Part shown: positions 83 to 12,148 of the stretch, piece after piece
Layout of the letters: the number at the start of each line of letters is the position of its first letter
Numbering within the stretch: the first letter of the stretch is position 1
Source of the DNA: Comamonadaceae bacterium
GTDB taxonomy: Bacteria; Pseudomonadota; Gammaproteobacteria; Burkholderiales; Burkholderiaceae_C
Direction of reading: 5' to 3'
NCBI GenBank assembly: GCA_947453965.1
Contig: CANGIQ010000004.1
Location: 62,001 to 126,000, forward strand
Length of the DNA stretch: 64,000 nucleotides
Notes under the pieces: model-generated
What the model was told of the DNA's origin: nothing
Databases searched by the model: none
The model's input: the letters and a program-made list of their open reading frames with translations, nothing else
Position numbers and translations under genes: made by a program

Positions 83-1177
83 ATGCAAGTTTCTGTTCTA
101 GTTAAATTACTCTCAATCATGAGTGTGAATACCTCTGCCGAAACTGCAATTACTGCACGTGATATCGCGCTTAAATGGGATAAGCGTTATCCAGATGGTG
201 AACCGGATGAAAGCACGCTGCGGCAAGTTCAACGGTATATGAATGAGCTGACCGCGTCCATAGAAGACTTGCCTCCTCTGATTGAGTATGAAGAGTTTCA
301 AATCTCAATCACGCCAAAGCTTCAAGGAAAAAAGGCCAGAGAAGTCCGTCACTTCTATTTGCCACCAGACAGAGTTGTCAAGTGGTTTATGACAGAACAG
401 GCGGCGGTTAACCTTCTATTAACTGGTCAAGTGGTTGGTCAATCTTTGGGCGGTATAAAGCAGCTTGGCTTGAATCGCGTTAAGTCGATTGCCAGCGATG
501 TCATTGATTTAAAGAAGTCTGATGAACTTCGACGAATTGCAAGCAGTATCAGAATTGTTCAGGACGGCTTAGGCCGTTTGCGCGCCACTATTCGTCCAGG
601 CATCCTTCAAACCATGATGGATAGCATCATTTCAGACAAGGCTGTATCTTTTACCTATGTGAAGCCCAATGGTGAGTCTAAAAAGCATACGGTTAATCCA
701 TTGGGTTTGGTGAGCAAGGACGGTGCTATTTATCTGATTGCCACGAAGGGCAGTGATCCCAAAAAAATTCACTTCGCATTGCAACGGGTTATTGACGCGG
801 ATGTTGCAAGTCGATCGCCGAGAATTGTTCCATTAGGTTTCGATCTTGACCAATACATCGAGGAAACGCATCAATTGAGTCATCCTATTGGTGAGGGGAT
901 TCAACTTGTTCTAGAAGCGAATGATGAAGCACTTTTTCATTTCGTAGAACGGCCTCTTGCGCGTACGCAAAAGATTGAAAAATCACGTACAAAAAAATGG
1001 CACAAGATTACTGCTGAAATTCCAAACACAATACTTCTTATGCCATTTTTAATGAGCATGCTTAAAAACGTTCGTGTAATTGAGCCGCTTTCACTTCGAA
1101 AAGAAGTTGCCAATATGATTGAACAGATGAAGGAAAACTACTCGATTCCAGGCGCTGATGAGCTGCACCGTATATAG
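83..1177 (+). CDS. WYL-domain transcriptional regulator (BrxR/CapW-like architecture: N-terminal wHTH, WYL, C-terminal extension)
   Basis: 364 aa ORF; N-terminal HTH-like stretch (ITARDIALKW...ESTLRQVQRYMNEL) followed by a WYL-type core (ISDKAVSFTYVKPNGESKKHTVNPLGLVSKDGAIYLIATKG). Confidence 0.8.
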   Translation: MQVSVLVKLLSIMSVNTSAETAITARDIALKWDKRYPDGEPDESTLRQVQRYMNELTASIEDLPPLIEYEEFQISITPKLQGKKAREVRHFYLPPDRVVKWFMTEQAAVNLLLTGQVVGQSLGGIKQLGLNRVKSIASDVIDLKKSDELRRIASSIRIVQDGLGRLRATIRPGILQTMMDSIISDKAVSFTYVKPNGESKKHTVNPLGLVSKDGAIYLIATKGSDPKKIHFALQRVIDADVASRSPRIVPLGFDLDQYIEETHQLSHPIGEGIQLVLEANDEALFHFVERPLARTQKIEKSRTKKWHKITAEIPNTILLMPFLMSMLKNVRVIEPLSLRKEVANMIEQMKENYSIPGADELHRI

Positions 1178-1200: not shown

Positions 1201-1809
1201 TCATGCTGATTTTTTCAAGTAAGGGCCATAGACTTCAGCCGGCGCAAATCCTGCACAGAGTTGCTCGATGATATGGTCGCGAAAGTTGCGGACCTCTGGC
1301 GATAAGTTAGAGCGGTTCGCTGTGTAAAACTCCCACATTATTTCGGAAGCTTTAACTTTTGAAATCTTGATTGTTTTTTGAAGGCGGATTGCATTGGCAG
1401 CTTTTGCTTTATGGATGTGGTCCCAAAATTCGGGTAGCTTAGCTTCCCAATTAAAGGCATAACAGATTTGACGCTCTTGTTCGCAGTCGAATTTGTTTTT
1501 GATGCCTTCGCCGCACTCACCTTTGCGACCTACGATCAAAGTTGAGATACGTGGCAACTTCGCTTGCTCAGCAAAGTCAAAAATTACACCCAACACACGG
1601 CCTGTTCGTACAGGAATCATTTTCTGAATGTCAGTGTCATTTGGATGACGCTGTTTTGCCAGTTCGATCAACTCTTTGTATGTCAGCACTGTCTTATTTT
1701 TAGCTGTCTCGATCAAAATTGGATAAAACAGACTTGCCAAATGCAAGCTTAAGTCTGTATGAAAATTTTGCTCACTAGAGTCAACGGAGAGAGGGGAGAA
1801 GTTAGTCAT
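1201..1809 (-). CDS. Uncharacterised protein
   Basis: ORF track gives 1201..1872 from a TTG; the ATG at 1809 has an AAGGA Shine-Dalgarno. Region TYKELIELAKQ...RTGRVLGVIFDFAEQAKLPRISTLIVGRKGECGEGI is vaguely winged-helix-like; no firm family. Confidence 0.6.
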   Translation of the reverse strand: MTNFSPLSVDSSEQNFHTDLSLHLASLFYPILIETAKNKTVLTYKELIELAKQRHPNDTDIQKMIPVRTGRVLGVIFDFAEQAKLPRISTLIVGRKGECGEGIKNKFDCEQERQICYAFNWEAKLPEFWDHIHKAKAANAIRLQKTIKISKVKASEIMWEFYTANRSNLSPEVRNFRDHIIEQLCAGFAPAEVYGPYLKKSA

Positions 1810-1866
1810 GTCATTCCTTAAATCAGGGTTGCTTTGCGATTCATTTGATAGTTTTTCAGATGGTGG

Positions 1867-1881
1867 CGACAAAAGATGTCG
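1867..1881. promoter_or_regulatory. Candidate operator site A, CGACA-AAAGA-TGTCG
   Basis: Perfect 5-bp inverted repeat; read towards the 223-codon gene it is CGACATCTTTTGTCGCC. Ends 56 nt upstream of ATG 1809. Confidence 0.5.
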
Positions 1882-1914
1882 TTTTATCGAATGTTTATCG
1901 ATTTTTCCATGTGT

Positions 1915-3345
1915 CTACGCAACAAGAGAGAAAGGACCTCCAGGTTTTTTCATTGATTCCCTTTGCAACTGAATGATTGATTCAAAGTCTTTTCGTGTAA
2001 GAAACGTTTTTTCATTCAATGTCTCTGCAATCAGCTTTAAAAGCTGATGGTGGGCTTTAAAGAGGCTCAGTACCATCTCAAATTGAGTAGACAGGTATTC
2101 GCGAATCATGATTTCTACATGGGCGTATTCTGATGGCGTTGGCTTGCCGAGCACGACTTCAAGATTTGATGCGGCTTGCGCATCAGTGGAAAGATCTGGT
2201 GAGTGCCCCCACTTACCAAATAATCCGCCTGCAAGTCGAGTTGCAGATTCAAGGTCTGATTTGGAGCCACTTGCGCTTGTTTGCGTCGCTCCAAGTAAAT
2301 AGTGCTCTGCTACACGTCCACCGAGTGCGACACGAATCTTGTGCGTGATGTCTCGATAGGTCAAGTCATCACTGATTCGTTCATGATCGTCATAGCCACG
2401 AACGACAACGCCATGTGTTCCACCACGCTTTATGACACTACAGTATTCAGGCGGTGTTTTGTCTTTGGAGTCCAAATAAACAACAAGGGCGTGTCCAGCT
2501 TCATGAATAGCGTGACGCTGGCGAATTTCAGGTGGATCTAATTGATCATCGCATTCGCTAATTCCATACACAGCCAGCATCACCAAGTCATTAAATGTGA
2601 CTTTTCGCTTCTCTGACCACGCGCGACGCTGGAGTGATTTTTGAACAATGCTGCGGCGACGGTAGTCATTCAATTCATGCCGAACTAGACATCCGACACG
2701 TTTCAGATTGGATTGATACGACTCATCAACAATGCCAATACCCGTTTCCTCCAGAAATGCCTGGGCAGTTTCTTCATAACCAATTTCAGGTATTTCAATG
2801 CGCCGATCGAAGAGGCCAGATTGACGTAACTGCTTGTCCATTTGGGATACAGACTGCAATCCTGTTACAAAAACAATAGGTTGCTGCAGAATCCCTGCTC
2901 TAAGGCGTTTTGCGAGCTCTTTGCGAAATTCATAGGCCTTGTCTTCATCGTGCGTTGGACATTCAGGCCACTCATGATCATCCTCGTCATCGTTCGCACC
3001 ATTTTTAAGCCAAGCACCGGGTTCAAGGTAGATGAGAACAGGTTCATTGCCAGCTAAGACATCGAGCCACTCGCCAAAATTACTGACTTGATCATGAGCG
3101 ATGATATGCAACTGCATACCTGCCTCACCAGCAATGTAATGGACCATTGTTTGAATTGCTTCAACATCGTGATGTTCGATGACTACTGCATGCCCAATCA
3201 TTTCCCATTCATGTCGGAAAAAGCTAGAGCCAGTTGCTGTCTTGATGGCATCTTTCCAACGCTTGATGGCACTTGTCTCGGGAAGAAAATTCCAAAATGT
3301 ACACCCCAAATTTGCTGTCGATATTTGTGGAATAGTTTTTTTCAT
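1915..3345 (-). CDS. FtsH-like M41 metalloprotease with degenerate AAA domain
   Basis: HEAGH zinc motif, LGGRVAEHYLLG and KSDLESATRLAG match the M41 domain; SGLFDRRIEIP matches the FtsH PGRFDRQ second-region-of-homology; no GxxxxGK[ST] P-loop anywhere. Confidence 0.75.
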   Translation of the reverse strand: MKKTIPQISTANLGCTFWNFLPETSAIKRWKDAIKTATGSSFFRHEWEMIGHAVVIEHHDVEAIQTMVHYIAGEAGMQLHIIAHDQVSNFGEWLDVLAGNEPVLIYLEPGAWLKNGANDDEDDHEWPECPTHDEDKAYEFRKELAKRLRAGILQQPIVFVTGLQSVSQMDKQLRQSGLFDRRIEIPEIGYEETAQAFLEETGIGIVDESYQSNLKRVGCLVRHELNDYRRRSIVQKSLQRRAWSEKRKVTFNDLVMLAVYGISECDDQLDPPEIRQRHAIHEAGHALVVYLDSKDKTPPEYCSVIKRGGTHGVVVRGYDDHERISDDLTYRDITHKIRVALGGRVAEHYLLGATQTSASGSKSDLESATRLAGGLFGKWGHSPDLSTDAQAASNLEVVLGKPTPSEYAHVEIMIREYLSTQFEMVLSLFKAHHQLLKLIAETLNEKTFLTRKDFESIIQLQRESMKKPGGPFSLVA

Positions 3346-3389
3346 GTATCGCTCCTTTGTCTGTGAAGATGCACGGTAAATGAATTAAG

Positions 3390-3404
3390 CGACAAATACT
3401 GTCG
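3390..3404. promoter_or_regulatory. Candidate operator site B, CGACA-AATAC-TGTCG
   Basis: Perfect 5-bp inverted repeat 43 nt upstream of the FtsH-like start; read towards the gene it is TTGACGACAGTATTTGTCGC. Confidence 0.5.
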
Positions 3405-3479
3405 TCAAAAATGAAAGCCTTTTTGAGGCGGCATTGAGAACCCTAATTTCGCCGGAAATTCGGATTCCATAAATATTGA

Positions 3480-3494
3480 CGACTTCTTTTGTCG
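3480..3494. promoter_or_regulatory. Candidate operator site C, CGACT-TCTTT-TGTCG
   Basis: One mismatch in the palindrome; TTGACGACTTCTTTTGTCGC is 16/20 identical to sites A and B in gene orientation; 53 nt upstream of ATG 3549. Confidence 0.5.
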
Positions 3495-3548
3495 CCTTCA
3501 TTTCTCACAATAGTTTTTGTTAACAACTTAACGAGTTGGGGGAAAGCG

Positions 3549-4616
3549 ATGTCCGCAGTAAAGCCAAGTACATGCTCTTTTAGGAGGCGCAAACTTTTCG
3601 ACGCTCATGCGCTCTTGTGCATTTTTATTGCGACGTCAATTCTTTTCCTCTGCGGTTGTGCCACGACGCCAGTGACCAGCCGTAATGCAAGTACACCCGT
3701 ACGGGCCACAGGTGTTGGATCAACAATGGAAAATGCAAAAGAGAATGCGTTTCGCCAAGCGATTGAAAACAAAATTGGTGTTCTCGTTCTCAGCGAGAAA
3801 GAAATTAAGAATTTCAAGCTGAACAAAGATGACATCTTGACGTTTAGTGCTGGATTTATTGATGACTACAACGTGATTAGCAAAGAAAAGTTAGCTGCAA
3901 AATGGGTTGTAACTATCGATGCATGGGTTTCTGGTAGCCGCCTTGCAAACAAGATTACAGCAATCAGCTCGGTGGATGGTTCGATCAGCGGAAAAAAAGC
4001 AGCTGATCGATTCGATTCATTCATCAAACAAAAGCAACAAGCGGATCGGTTGCTACAAAAAATGATTTCTGGCTTTCCTGAAGATGCGATTCAGGTTAGA
4101 TTTCTCCGGACCGAGATGAAATTTGATCCAGACCGACGTGCGCAGGTTTTAATTTATTTTGAAACTGCATGGAGTAAGGCTTACATTACTTCACTCTTGG
4201 AAATGCTTGCACTTCTCCAAGATACAACTTATGGAAATGGGTTTGTTGGTGTCGTAAATGTTAGTCACAAAAAACCAGATGACTGGTTCGGAAGCCTTGA
4301 TACTTTTTATTTTTTAGATCGTCATTTATTCAATACCTTGTATAACCAACTAAATAACACCAAAATTGCTGTGCGTTTAAAAATTCGAGATGGCCGAACG
4401 GTCGTGCATGAAGACTGCTGGCCGCTCGACAATCAGTTCATTACCTATGGTTATGGAAGTCAACTTGGGATTTTGGGCAATCGCATCTTTGAATCTAAGA
4501 TTCAAATGGAAATTCCGTATGGCTCGTCTGCGCATCGCGTCTTAGAAAGTGCGAGTAGCATCACACTTTCTATTGAATCTGCAGACCGTTGTAGTCGCTC
4601 TAAGACAAAGCGCTAA
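3549..4616 (+). CDS. Predicted lipoprotein with LPP20/FlgT-N-like domain
   Basis: ORF track start 3489 is TTG; ATG 3549 has a GGGGGAAAG Shine-Dalgarno. Signal peptide with lipobox LCGC; ATGVGSTMENAKENAFRQAIENKIGV...DILTFSAGFIDDYNVIS resembles LPP20/FlgT-N. Confidence 0.65.
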   Translation: MSAVKPSTCSFRRRKLFDAHALLCIFIATSILFLCGCATTPVTSRNASTPVRATGVGSTMENAKENAFRQAIENKIGVLVLSEKEIKNFKLNKDDILTFSAGFIDDYNVISKEKLAAKWVVTIDAWVSGSRLANKITAISSVDGSISGKKAADRFDSFIKQKQQADRLLQKMISGFPEDAIQVRFLRTEMKFDPDRRAQVLIYFETAWSKAYITSLLEMLALLQDTTYGNGFVGVVNVSHKKPDDWFGSLDTFYFLDRHLFNTLYNQLNNTKIAVRLKIRDGRTVVHEDCWPLDNQFITYGYGSQLGILGNRIFESKIQMEIPYGSSAHRVLESASSITLSIESADRCSRSKTKR

Positions 4617-4647
4617 TTTGCTAACTTATAAGTAGAGAAATTCAGTG

Positions 4648-4667
4648 CTAAATTTGATTTTTGTCGC
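4648..4667 (+). promoter_or_regulatory. Candidate half-site D (TTTTTGTCGC)
   Basis: Shares the TTTGTCGC right half with sites A-C, 49 nt upstream of ATG 4717; left half not conserved. Confidence 0.35.
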
Positions 4668-4716: not shown

Positions 4717-6858
4717 ATGTCAACAGCTTCTAAGGCTCGTTATTTGAGCAAATCGCGTTTTAAATTGGCATTGGAATGCCCAACTAGGCTTTTTTACGCT
4801 AAAGAGTCAAATGGGTATTTCGACAAAAATCAAGATAACGATTTCCTACACGCACTGGCTGATGGCGGAAATCAGGTTGGCGAACTTGCAAAATTTAAAT
4901 ACCATCCAAATCCAATTGGCGAAGCTATTACCGTGGAGCCGCTTGGATATGAGGAAGCACTTTCACAAACTCGATTGAAGATGTCTACTTCGACTCGCAC
5001 TGTGATTGCTGAGGCCGCATTGCTGCATGAGACATTTTTTGTTCGTGTTGATATTCTGATTCATGATCCTGTCGCTAAGACAATCGAGATCATCGAGGTG
5101 AAGTCAAAAAGTATTGATGATGCGACCATTGCGTCACGCTTCAAAAATGATAAAGGAAACTTTCAAGCGAAATGGCTCCCTTATCTCTATGACGTCACAT
5201 TTCAATCAGAAGTCGCTAGGCGTTGTTTCCCTGAGTACAAAATTATTTCTAAGTTGTTGTTGCTAGATTCTGATGAAGTTTGCGACATTGATGCCTTGCA
5301 TCAAAAATTCAAAATCGTCACGGTGAAAGATCCTCAGTCTGGTAAGGCGCGCGTTCGCATTGAAACGGCACCTGATTTAACGCGTGATGATTTGGGCCGA
5401 TTGAATTTCTTGCGTGAAGTTCTTGTTAGCGACATCGTTCATGAATTGCGTGCTAAACCGATTGACAACACTCCGCACGTTCCTTCTGAACATGGCAGGG
5501 ATTTGAACACCTTCATGAGTTGGGTAGGACGCCTTCAAGCAGAAGGCGCTTTATATTTCGGAGGCGTTTCCAAGGCATGTAAGTCATGTCAATTCAGAGC
5601 AGGTCCAAATGAGCCGAAGAAGAGTGGTGTTCATGACTGTTGGCAAACTGCTTTGAGTCAAGGGATGCTTGATTCCGGACGTGATATCGAAGATCGTAGT
5701 GAGCCACTTTCCATTGATATTTGGGGTGGGGGTTCTGGGTCGGTCAGTATGGCCGATCGGGTGCTTGAGGCGCGACGTGCATTTCTTGCTCATGTCCAAG
5801 AGGATGATGTTCGTCCAAAAAATCAAAGTAATGAAATTGGGATGTCTTCGCTTGAACGACGGATGTTTCAGGTGAAGGCAGCCAATGAAAAAACAAATGT
5901 TGTTGAAATTAATGAGGACGTCTTGAGTGCCATAGATAATTGGGAGTGGCCTTTGCACATGATTGACTTTGAAACTTCAGCACCAGCAATTCCTTTCTTT
6001 AAGGATATGCATCCATATCAAACTTTGGCGTTCCAGTTCAGTCACCACATCATGGAAAAGTTGCCTAGCGGCAAGGTGAAAATTCGTCATGCGAATCAAT
6101 GGATCAGCACGAAGGCAGAGTCATTTCCAAGTATTGAGTTTGTTAGGCAGTTACGAAACGCCTTGATGCCAGGTGGACGCCTAGTTGGTACAGTTTTTCG
6201 ATATCACAATCATGAAAACTCTGTGCTGCGCAGCCTGCGTAAGACAATCCTTGATGAAGGACAGTCTTTGGTGCCTGATATGGAGGCCCTGGTTGAGTTC
6301 ATTGATCTGATTACTAAATCAACGAGCTCTGAGGCATCGTTTGAAGGTGAGAAACAAATGGTTGACTTGCACCGTTTGATTCAAAAGGGTTATTACTCTA
6401 GCGTGGCCGGTGGCAGCATTTCTTTGAAATACATGCTCCCCGCTGTACTTCATGACGCGCCAGCAGTTTCAGATTTTTATCGTAAGCCAAAGATCTATGG
6501 AGCGGGTCTTGTTATCGATAGCCTTAACTTTAATCAGGAAGGGCATGTCTGGCTGCAAGCAGATAAAGGAAATGATCCTTACAAAACATTGCCAGGTATT
6601 TTTGGCCCAGACTATGGAGAGCTTGATGCCATCATTGCCCGTCTTGCGGGAGACGAAGAGGGGGAAGATGGTGCGATCAATCAAGGCGGTCTGGCCATGA
6701 CGGCCTATAACTACACTCAATTTACCAGCTTGCAAGATGCTGATCGTGAACGAATTCAATCCGCACTTTTGCGTTACTGTGAGCTCGATACTTTGGCTAT
6801 GGTTATTTTGGTGCAGGGTGTGATGGAGTTGCGTGGTACCCCGCTAACTATTCAATAA
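4717..6858 (+). CDS. DUF2779-family protein: Cas4-like PD-(D/E)XK nuclease with Fe-S cysteines plus C-terminal DEDD (RNase H-like) exonuclease
   Basis: LALECPTRLFY, VRVDILIHDPVAKTIEIIEVKSKS (D...EVK), CKSCQF...HDCW cysteines; then HMIDFETSAPAIPF, SLKYMLPAVL and YCELDTLAMV motifs. Confidence 0.8.
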   Translation: MSTASKARYLSKSRFKLALECPTRLFYAKESNGYFDKNQDNDFLHALADGGNQVGELAKFKYHPNPIGEAITVEPLGYEEALSQTRLKMSTSTRTVIAEAALLHETFFVRVDILIHDPVAKTIEIIEVKSKSIDDATIASRFKNDKGNFQAKWLPYLYDVTFQSEVARRCFPEYKIISKLLLLDSDEVCDIDALHQKFKIVTVKDPQSGKARVRIETAPDLTRDDLGRLNFLREVLVSDIVHELRAKPIDNTPHVPSEHGRDLNTFMSWVGRLQAEGALYFGGVSKACKSCQFRAGPNEPKKSGVHDCWQTALSQGMLDSGRDIEDRSEPLSIDIWGGGSGSVSMADRVLEARRAFLAHVQEDDVRPKNQSNEIGMSSLERRMFQVKAANEKTNVVEINEDVLSAIDNWEWPLHMIDFETSAPAIPFFKDMHPYQTLAFQFSHHIMEKLPSGKVKIRHANQWISTKAESFPSIEFVRQLRNALMPGGRLVGTVFRYHNHENSVLRSLRKTILDEGQSLVPDMEALVEFIDLITKSTSSEASFEGEKQMVDLHRLIQKGYYSSVAGGSISLKYMLPAVLHDAPAVSDFYRKPKIYGAGLVIDSLNFNQEGHVWLQADKGNDPYKTLPGIFGPDYGELDAIIARLAGDEEGEDGAINQGGLAMTAYNYTQFTSLQDADRERIQSALLRYCELDTLAMVILVQGVMELRGTPLTIQ

Positions 6859-11380: not shown

Positions 11381-12148
11381 TCACTCAGCATAGCCAGGAT
11401 TGACACGGTCCAACACCCGCATCATGGCTTCGAAGTACAAGCGCTCGCGTTCTGCACGTGAATAGTGGTCATCCTTGCTGGGTGTGCGCACGCGGTCAAT
11501 CACGCGCTCTTCCAAGATGTTCAAAGGTTTGCACGTGCTCATGGCGAGCACTTGGGTGCGGCATGCTTTTTCGAGTTTGTAGAGCAAGCGGTAGGCCTGC
11601 GCCACGGTGTCGCCCACGGTGATGACGCCATGGTTTTTCAAGAACATGACGGACTTGTCTTTCAACAAGGATGCCAAGCGCTCGCCTTCGTTCAGCGATG
11701 AAGCCAACCCCGTGTAAGTGTCGTCATACGCAATGCGTTCATGGAAAAACGCAGCGGTTTGGGTCGCGGGCAGCAGGCGGTTGTCTTGCAGCATATTGAG
11801 TGCCAGTGCCCAAGGCTGGTGGGTGTGCAAAACCACCTTGGCACCGGTGAGCCGGTGCAGTGGCGCATGGATGCTGCGTGCAGACAGTTCAACCACGCCA
11901 TGGCCTTCCAGGGTGTCACCCGCTTCGTTGAACACCATGAGGTCGCTGGCCCGTGCTTCCGACCAGTGCAAACCAAATGGCAACACCATGTATTGGTCTT
12001 CACGCCCTGGCACCGTCATGGTGAAGTGGTTGTCGATGCCTTCGTCAAAGCCATCGTGGACGGCGAGTCGCAAAGCCGCTGCCAGATGGATCTTGGCTTG
12101 TTTGATGGGGTCGGGGTTCGATGCGCTGTGCAATGCGTGGACGGACAT
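11381..12148 (-). CDS. Class II aldolase/adducin family protein
   Basis: VVLHTHQPWALALNML, FLKNHGVITVGDTVAQAY; GGAAC Shine-Dalgarno before ATG 12148. Confidence 0.85.
   Translation of the reverse strand: MSVHALHSASNPDPIKQAKIHLAAALRLAVHDGFDEGIDNHFTMTVPGREDQYMVLPFGLHWSEARASDLMVFNEAGDTLEGHGVVELSARSIHAPLHRLTGAKVVLHTHQPWALALNMLQDNRLLPATQTAAFFHERIAYDDTYTGLASSLNEGERLASLLKDKSVMFLKNHGVITVGDTVAQAYRLLYKLEKACRTQVLAMSTCKPLNILEERVIDRVRTPSKDDHYSRAERERLYFEAMMRVLDRVNPGYAE

What the first reader, a model, noticed from the sequence alone, without database searches (positions are those of the whole stretch)
1867..4667. Shared palindromic promoter element defines a candidate regulon next to a WYL regulator
Read in gene orientation: A = AAAACGACATCTTTTGTCGC, B = TTGACGACAGTATTTGTCGC, C = TTGACGACTTCTTTTGTCGC, D = CTAAATTTGATTTTTGTCGC. 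A-C are CGAC(A/T)-N5-TGTCG palindromes; all four share TTTGTCGC in the same orientation, ending 56, 43, 53 and 49 nt upstream of the preferred start codons (1809, 3345, 3549, 4717). Four separate, differently oriented transcription starts with one element at near-constant distance is hard to explain by chance and ties the 223-codon ORF, the FtsH-like protease, the lipoprotein and the DUF2779 nuclease into one regulon. WYL proteins of the CapW/BrxR type are known to bind inverted repeats; that the WYL protein at 83-1177 is the regulator here is inference. TTGTCG may also overlap the -35 box.
Basis: partly seen in the sequence, partly recalled or inferred. Interest (0 to 1): 0.78.

Follow-up and report, generated by a model that had tools for sequence, protein, structure and literature searches.

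The report
DriD-type activator boxes controlling defence-like island
Four scattered promoters in a small, probably anti-phage gene island carry the same 15-base palindrome, placed like the binding site of a known DNA-damage activator (DriD), so the island's own WYL protein probably switches it on rather than holding it off.

Summary
The motif is real and far beyond chance. CGAC(A/T)-N5-TGTCG occurs five times in the 2.95-Mb genome. Four sites lie within 5 kb here, each before a gene: A, B, C, and a new one 1.5 kb left of the window. The fifth lies inside flhA. D is only a half-site.

Related islands in other genomes carry the box at matching places; the M41-protease site sits about 40 nt before the start codon in three genomes. 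One same-genus island with a different WYL has a changed box (AAGACA-N5-TGTCTT), whose only exact copies in that genome lie in the island.

The CapW/BrxR (repressor) comparison fits poorly. The core equals the DriD consensus (ATACGAC-N7-GTCGTAT). All seven main sites have an AnnnT hexamer exactly 11 nt downstream, as I also read in published DriD promoters, and none has a -35 box. The WYL protein's modelled fold matches DriD best. Best explanation: the WYL protein at 83-1177 is a DriD-like activator of protease, lipoprotein and probably nuclease genes in a defence-like island.

Ligand is open: the arginine pair of DriD/PafBC sensors is not conserved. Nothing was measured. New variant of a known kind.

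The parts
83..1177 (+). WYL2: wHTH-WYL-WCX regulator, proposed DriD-like activator; probably last gene of the run that starts at box E left of the window (genome C4:60470)
   Evidence: Pfam WYL and WCX; best fold match DriD 8tp8, E 2.7e-12; gene order
1204..1809 (-). p202, 202-aa protein of unknown function, target of box A; homologs also carry a box upstream in L107 (CGAC) and L067 (AGAC)
1867..1881 (-). Box A, CGACATCTTTTGTCG, then N11 and AAAACT
1850..1855 (-). -10-like hexamer AAAACT of box A
   Evidence: position from the fixed 11-nt spacing
1915..3345 (-). M41 metalloprotease (HEAGH motif) with FtsH-like C-terminal part; no Walker A motif seen in the sequence
   Evidence: Pfam Peptidase_M41 E 3.8e-22; sequence
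3390..3404 (-). Box B, CGACAGTATTTGTCG, then N11 and TACCGT; same place as in L068 and L015
3373..3378 (-). -10-like hexamer TACCGT of box B
3480..3494 (+). Box C, CGACTTCTTTTGTCG, then N11 and CACAAT
3506..3511 (+). -10-like hexamer CACAAT of box C
3549..4616 (+). 355-aa putative lipoprotein, target of box C
   Evidence: homologs at 43-52% in L065, L066, L067
4660..4667 (+). Half-site D (TTTGTCGC), with TAATGT 10 nt after TTGTCG; doubtful member
4717..6858 (+). DUF2779 protein, probable nuclease; probably read through from box C
   Evidence: Pfam DUF2779 E 2.1e-17; no clear terminator between 4616 and 4717 in the scan; 67% identical homolog directly downstream of a boxed AAA gene in L107

Best explanation
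The palindrome is the operator of a DriD-like transcriptional activator, most likely the WYL protein at 83-1177. A dimer, when its WYL domain is ligand-bound, sits on CGAC-N7-GTCG centred near -31, in place of the missing -35, and brings sigma70-type RNA polymerase to the AnnnT -10 that lies 11 nt downstream. One signal would thereby switch on the p148-p118-lipoprotein-WYL2 run (positive feedback), p202, the M41 protease and the 355-aa lipoprotein (DUF2779 probably by read-through), a defence-like set beside a tandem AAA ATPase and a GmrSD-type gene. Shown by computation: the boxes, their spacing, their conservation and their co-occurrence with the regulator. Inferred: binding, activation, ligand and anti-phage role.
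For: Four of the five genome copies within 5 kb, each before a gene. Box at matching places in islands with WYL2 or its relatives: L065, L066, L068, L107, L015. Island with a different WYL has AAGACA-N5-TGTCTT, whose only two exact copies in that genome lie in the island. AnnnT at exactly 11 nt in 7 of 7 sites, other offsets at most 2, 0 of 20000 shuffles. Same core as the DriD consensus and binding probe, and same 11-nt spacing in the DriD promoters printed in PMC12340889. -35 positions match at 0-1 of 6; no sigma70 promoter found at the sites. WYL2 model matches DriD first in the PDB. Recognition-helix R47/R51 kept in relatives with boxes.
Against: The outer bases of the DriD consensus (ATA...TAT) are not kept. 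The sensor arginine pair R-x-x-R is I/V-x-x-A in WYL2. WYL2 model confidence is moderate (pLDDT 74, TM about 0.46-0.51, identity 15%). L065 and L066 are near relatives, so the seven sites are not fully independent. L046 has WYL with both arginines but no exact box, and L102 and L108 likewise. Nothing measured.
Confidence: 0.72

Rival explanations
1. WYL2 binds the box as a CapW/BrxR-type repressor that blocks these promoters until an infection signal releases it.
For: CapW and BrxR are WYL repressors of defence systems that bind palindromes or inverted repeats; the island looks defence-like.
Against: CapW sites overlap the -10 and the BrxR R-BOX1 is downstream of its promoter; here the box is upstream of the -10 at fixed spacing and there is no -35. 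CapW and BrxR rank below DriD and PafBC in the fold search.
Confidence: 0.17
2. Another protein, for instance WYL1 (L006:6797-7768) or an unlinked factor, reads the box.
For: WYL1 is in the same locus. No binding was tested.
Against: WYL1 has no ortholog in the box-carrying islands L065, L066, L068 and lacks R47. The box occurs almost only in the island, which argues for an island-borne regulator, and it changes where the WYL changes.
Confidence: 0.08
3. The palindromes are not operators: chance, stems of weak terminators, or copies of a small mobile repeat.
For: Two of them score as weak terminator-like stems; the fifth genome copy is inside a gene.
Against: Far above chance; always 40-60 nt before a start codon with the same half towards the gene; fixed -10 spacing; kept at the M41 gene in other genera while the flanks differ.
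Confidence: 0.03

Closest known systems
[quoted passage not shown] PMC12340889; PDB 8tp8, 9pfq)
   Same: wHTH-WYL-WCX protein; palindromic box with CGAC-N7-GTCG core; box over the -35 region at fixed distance from a weak -10; poor -35.
   Different: Outer bases of the box; no R-x-x-R sensor pair in WYL2; only about 15-20% identity; regulates an island of AAA/protease/nuclease/lipoprotein genes instead of didA, bapE, recJ, dnaG.
PafBC of mycobacteria (PMC5656591, PMC11804915)
   Same: WYL activator; promoter motif tTGTCRgtg-N8-TannnT has the same right half and the same 11-nt spacing.
   Different: PafBC is a heterodimer of two WYL subunits; its motif as published is a half-site, here it is a palindrome; no R-x-x-R in WYL2.
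SiwR of Mycobacterium smegmatis (PMC10693628)
   Same: Single WYL activator with a 19-bp imperfect palindrome upstream of the -10; helix arginines R38 and R42 have the spacing of R47 and R51 here.
   Different: Different box (conserved GGA at -26); local dinS operon; R204/R207 sensor pair present there, not here.
CapW and BrxR (PMC9122588, PMC9122601)
   Same: WYL-domain regulators of defence islands that bind palindromes or inverted repeats.
   Different: Repressors with sites over or downstream of the -10; weaker structural match.

Membership tests
DriD-type WYL activators | wHTH-WYL-WCX architecture | tested here: met
   Pfam WYL and WCX; modelled N-terminal helices and best PDB match 8tp8
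DriD-type WYL activators | Box core CGAC-N7-GTCG | tested here: met
   A, B, C, E and orthologous sites
DriD-type WYL activators | Outer box bases ATA...TAT | tested here: not met
   Flanks read TTG, AAA, AAG and C/T
DriD-type WYL activators | Box over the -35 region at fixed distance from the -10, with a poor -35 | tested here: met
   11 nt in 7 of 7 sites and 0-1 of 6 -35 matches; DriD promoters aligned
DriD-type WYL activators | Arginine pair (R-x-x-R) in the WYL sensor, as in SiwR R204/R207 and aligned in DriD and PafBC | tested here: not met
   I/V-x-x-A in WYL2 and its three close orthologs; alignment only
DriD-type WYL activators | Activation of RNA polymerase by the ssDNA-bound dimer | not testable with these tools
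   Needs binding and transcription assays
PafBC | Right half-site with an 11-nt spacing to TAnnnT | tested here: met
PafBC | Two WYL subunits acting as a heterodimer | tested here: not met
   One WYL2 gene in the run; WYL1 is not conserved with it in orthologous islands
CapW/BrxR repressors | Operator over or downstream of the -10 | tested here: not met
   Box lies upstream of the -10-like hexamer; the -10 is inferred, not mapped
CapW/BrxR repressors | Represses its target promoters | not testable with these tools
   Needs a reporter assay
Known anti-phage system | Match of the island proteins to a described system | tested here: inconclusive
   M41, p202, lipoprotein and DUF2779 have no PADLOC match; AAA only weakly like IetA; the neighbouring GmrSD-type gene matches HEC-05

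The most novel reading that the evidence does not exclude
A family of AAA ATPase / DUF2779 nuclease / M41 protease islands is switched on, not de-repressed, by island-borne DriD-type WYL activators; box and recognition helix change together, and the altered sensor pocket (A-L-[HQ]-R in place of R-L-D-R) reads an infection signal other than the ssDNA read by DriD and PafBC.
Probability: 0.35. Interest if true: 0.75.

Novelty: new variant of a known kind. Interest (0 to 1): 0.62.

Why it matters
The WYL regulators best known from defence islands, CapW and BrxR, are repressors. A DriD-type activation box at several island promoters predicts inducible expression with positive feedback, gives a sequence signature (CGAC-N7-GTCG, 10-11 nt, AnnnT) for finding such islands, and offers a natural pair (WYL2 with CGAC boxes, the G632 WYL with AGAC boxes) in which WYL-DNA recognition and ligand sensing can be tested directly.

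Tried and rejected
WYL1 as the regulator (no ortholog in the box-carrying islands). Site D as a full member (half-site only). CapW/BrxR-type repression (wrong position relative to the -10). Chance. The loci first taken as controls (AAA-DUF2779-WYL islands of other genera) failed as controls because they carry the same box before the AAA gene; they became a lead, with the caution that their -10 spacing reads 10 nt and that this was seen after the fact. A first AlphaFold model from 4 sequences was too poor to use. A search of genome contigs gave one distant hit, plasmids gave no WYL2 and only partial FtsH-like matches to the M41 protein, viral contigs gave none.

Full report
Observation. A, B and C match CGAC(A/T)-N5-TGTCG; the window holds 5 strand-hits against 0.32 expected, with none of 100 shuffles reaching 5. 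D shares only TTTGTCGC, an octamer found 10 times in the window against 4.5 expected. In the whole genome (2.95 Mb, 47 contigs) the motif has five sites: A, B, C, one 1.5 kb left of the window (contig C4:60470, 'E'), and one inside flhA. Four sites in 5 kb has P about 2e-10. A longer pattern with up to three mismatches leaves the same four as the only sites with 0-1 mismatch; from two mismatches on, hits are scattered and not above the control.

The locus. L006 is C4:50001-69000 (window position + 12000). From left to right: a GmrSD-type gene (PADLOC HEC-05, E 2.6e-226); WYL1 on the minus strand; a tandem AAA ATPase of 714 aa (weakly like the anti-phage ATPase IetA, E 1e-40, and far below the NCBIfam cut-off); box E; then four genes in a row (148 aa, 110 aa, a 211-aa lipoprotein, WYL2). 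Box A precedes p202, box B the M41 protease and box C a 355-aa lipoprotein, which is followed by DUF2779; a photolyase gene lies beyond. WYL2 is thus probably transcribed from box E, which would give positive feedback (inference from gene order).

Orthologous islands. Three further genomes carry WYL2 at about 52% identity. L065 (same genus) has the exact box 59 nt before the 211-aa lipoprotein gene. L066 (same genus, AAA gene lost) has a one-mismatch box before the same gene and an exact box elsewhere. L068 (another genus) has CGACTATTTTTGTCG about 40 nt before its M41 gene, as in the window. More distant islands agree: L107 (WYL2-like, 35%) has exact boxes before its p202 homolog and its AAA gene, the latter followed directly by a DUF2779 gene 67% identical to the window's; L015 (another family, with another WYL) has CGACCTATTTTGTCG about 40 nt before its M41 gene.

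A natural swap. L067 (same genus) has the M41, AAA, DUF2779, p118, p202 and lipoprotein genes but not WYL2; it has a different WYL protein of 350 aa. It has no CGAC box. Instead AAGACA-N5-TGTCTT stands before p202 and before a small gene, and these two are the only exact copies in that genome. Same geometry, different outer base, different regulator: this is the best evidence that the local WYL protein reads the box.

What kind of box. The DriD paper (PMC12340889) gives ATACGAC-N7-GTCGTAT and a binding probe ATACGACAGTAACTGTCGTAT, the same CGACA-N5-TGTCG core. The mycobacterial RecA-independent promoter motif is tTGTCRgtg-N8-TannnT (PMC5656591). I therefore asked whether a -10 lies at fixed distance. 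Over seven sites (A, B, C, E, and those in L065, L066, L068) all have AnnnT exactly 11 nt after TTGTCG (TTGACG in L066), five being TAnnnT; no other offset from 0 to 29 has more than two, and none of 20,000 shuffles reaches this. L065 and L066 are close relatives, so the sites are not fully independent. The DriD promoters printed in that paper align with the same 11 nt (CAAGGT, CAATCT, CAAGCC); that reading is mine, anchored on the G-14 which the authors call conserved. With this -10, the -35 positions match TTGACA at 0 or 1 of 6, and a sigma70 scan finds no promoter at the sites. This is the anatomy of an activator-dependent promoter. CapW sites overlap the -10, and the BrxR R-BOX1 lies downstream of its promoter (PMC9122588, PMC9122601).

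The protein. A profile of WYL2 finds DriD and PafBC only weakly by sequence (E 0.002-0.005, WYL part only). A model built with 16 homologs (pLDDT 74) matches DriD first (E 2.7e-12), then PafBC, then CapW and BrxR. The recognition helix carries R47 and R51; arginines with the same spacing (R38, R42) are needed in SiwR (PMC10693628). Box-carrying relatives keep both; the L067 WYL has a rearranged helix, and the L050 WYL has S51 and only imperfect boxes. The sensor pair R-x-x-R aligned in DriD and PafBC is I/V-x-x-A in WYL2 and R-x-x-A in several relatives. I therefore do not file WYL2 as a DriD ortholog: it appears to work like DriD at the promoter, and its ligand is open.

Wider family. AAA-WYL islands of other genera (L047, L048, L049, L051, L052, L053, L057, L058; several with DUF2779) carry CGAC-N7-GTCG upstream of the AAA gene, in most about 40-55 nt before its start; two AAA loci in which no WYL was detected (L055, L056) have no exact box. 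There the AnnnT hexamer reads at 10 nt. I met these while using them as controls, so this is a lead and not a planned test. L046, L102 and L108 have such a WYL but no exact box.

Conclusion. Binding, activation, ligand and anti-phage function are inferred; nothing here was measured.

Noticed in passing
L006:5019-6755 (genome C4, left of the window): GmrSD-type DUF262 gene that matches PADLOC HEC-05 (E 2.6e-226), next to WYL1 and the AAA gene; supports a defence-island setting.
   Followed up: partly
window:1915-3345: M41 protease keeps HEAGH, but its FtsH-like N-terminal part shows no Walker A motif; it may depend on the separate tandem AAA ATPase (L006:8174-10318).
   Followed up: no
L066:9020-9100: The AAA gene present in L065 is missing here; its box-like upstream stretch (CGTCTATATTTGTCG, 11 nt, GATCAT) remains in front of p118.
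   Followed up: partly
L067:1092-1110, 5468-5486, 12007-12025: Variant box AAAGACA-N5-TGTCTTT (0-2 mismatches) before a small gene, p202 and a resolvase-like gene, in the island with a different WYL protein.
   Followed up: yes
L047, L048, L049, L051, L052, L053, L057, L058: AAA-WYL islands in other genera carry GCGACA-N5-TGTCGC-like boxes upstream of the AAA gene, with an AnnnT hexamer at 10 rather than 11 nt.
   Followed up: partly
L067:7489-8229, L107:9029-9787, L102:6254-7519: A recurrent uncharacterised protein (about 250 aa, 421 aa in L102; 'FYPGAGxDGxP' stretch) in these islands, without a Pfam match where tested (L107).
   Followed up: no
L066:10788-10802: An exact box downstream of WYL2 without AnnnT at 11 nt in either direction; target unclear.
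   Followed up: no
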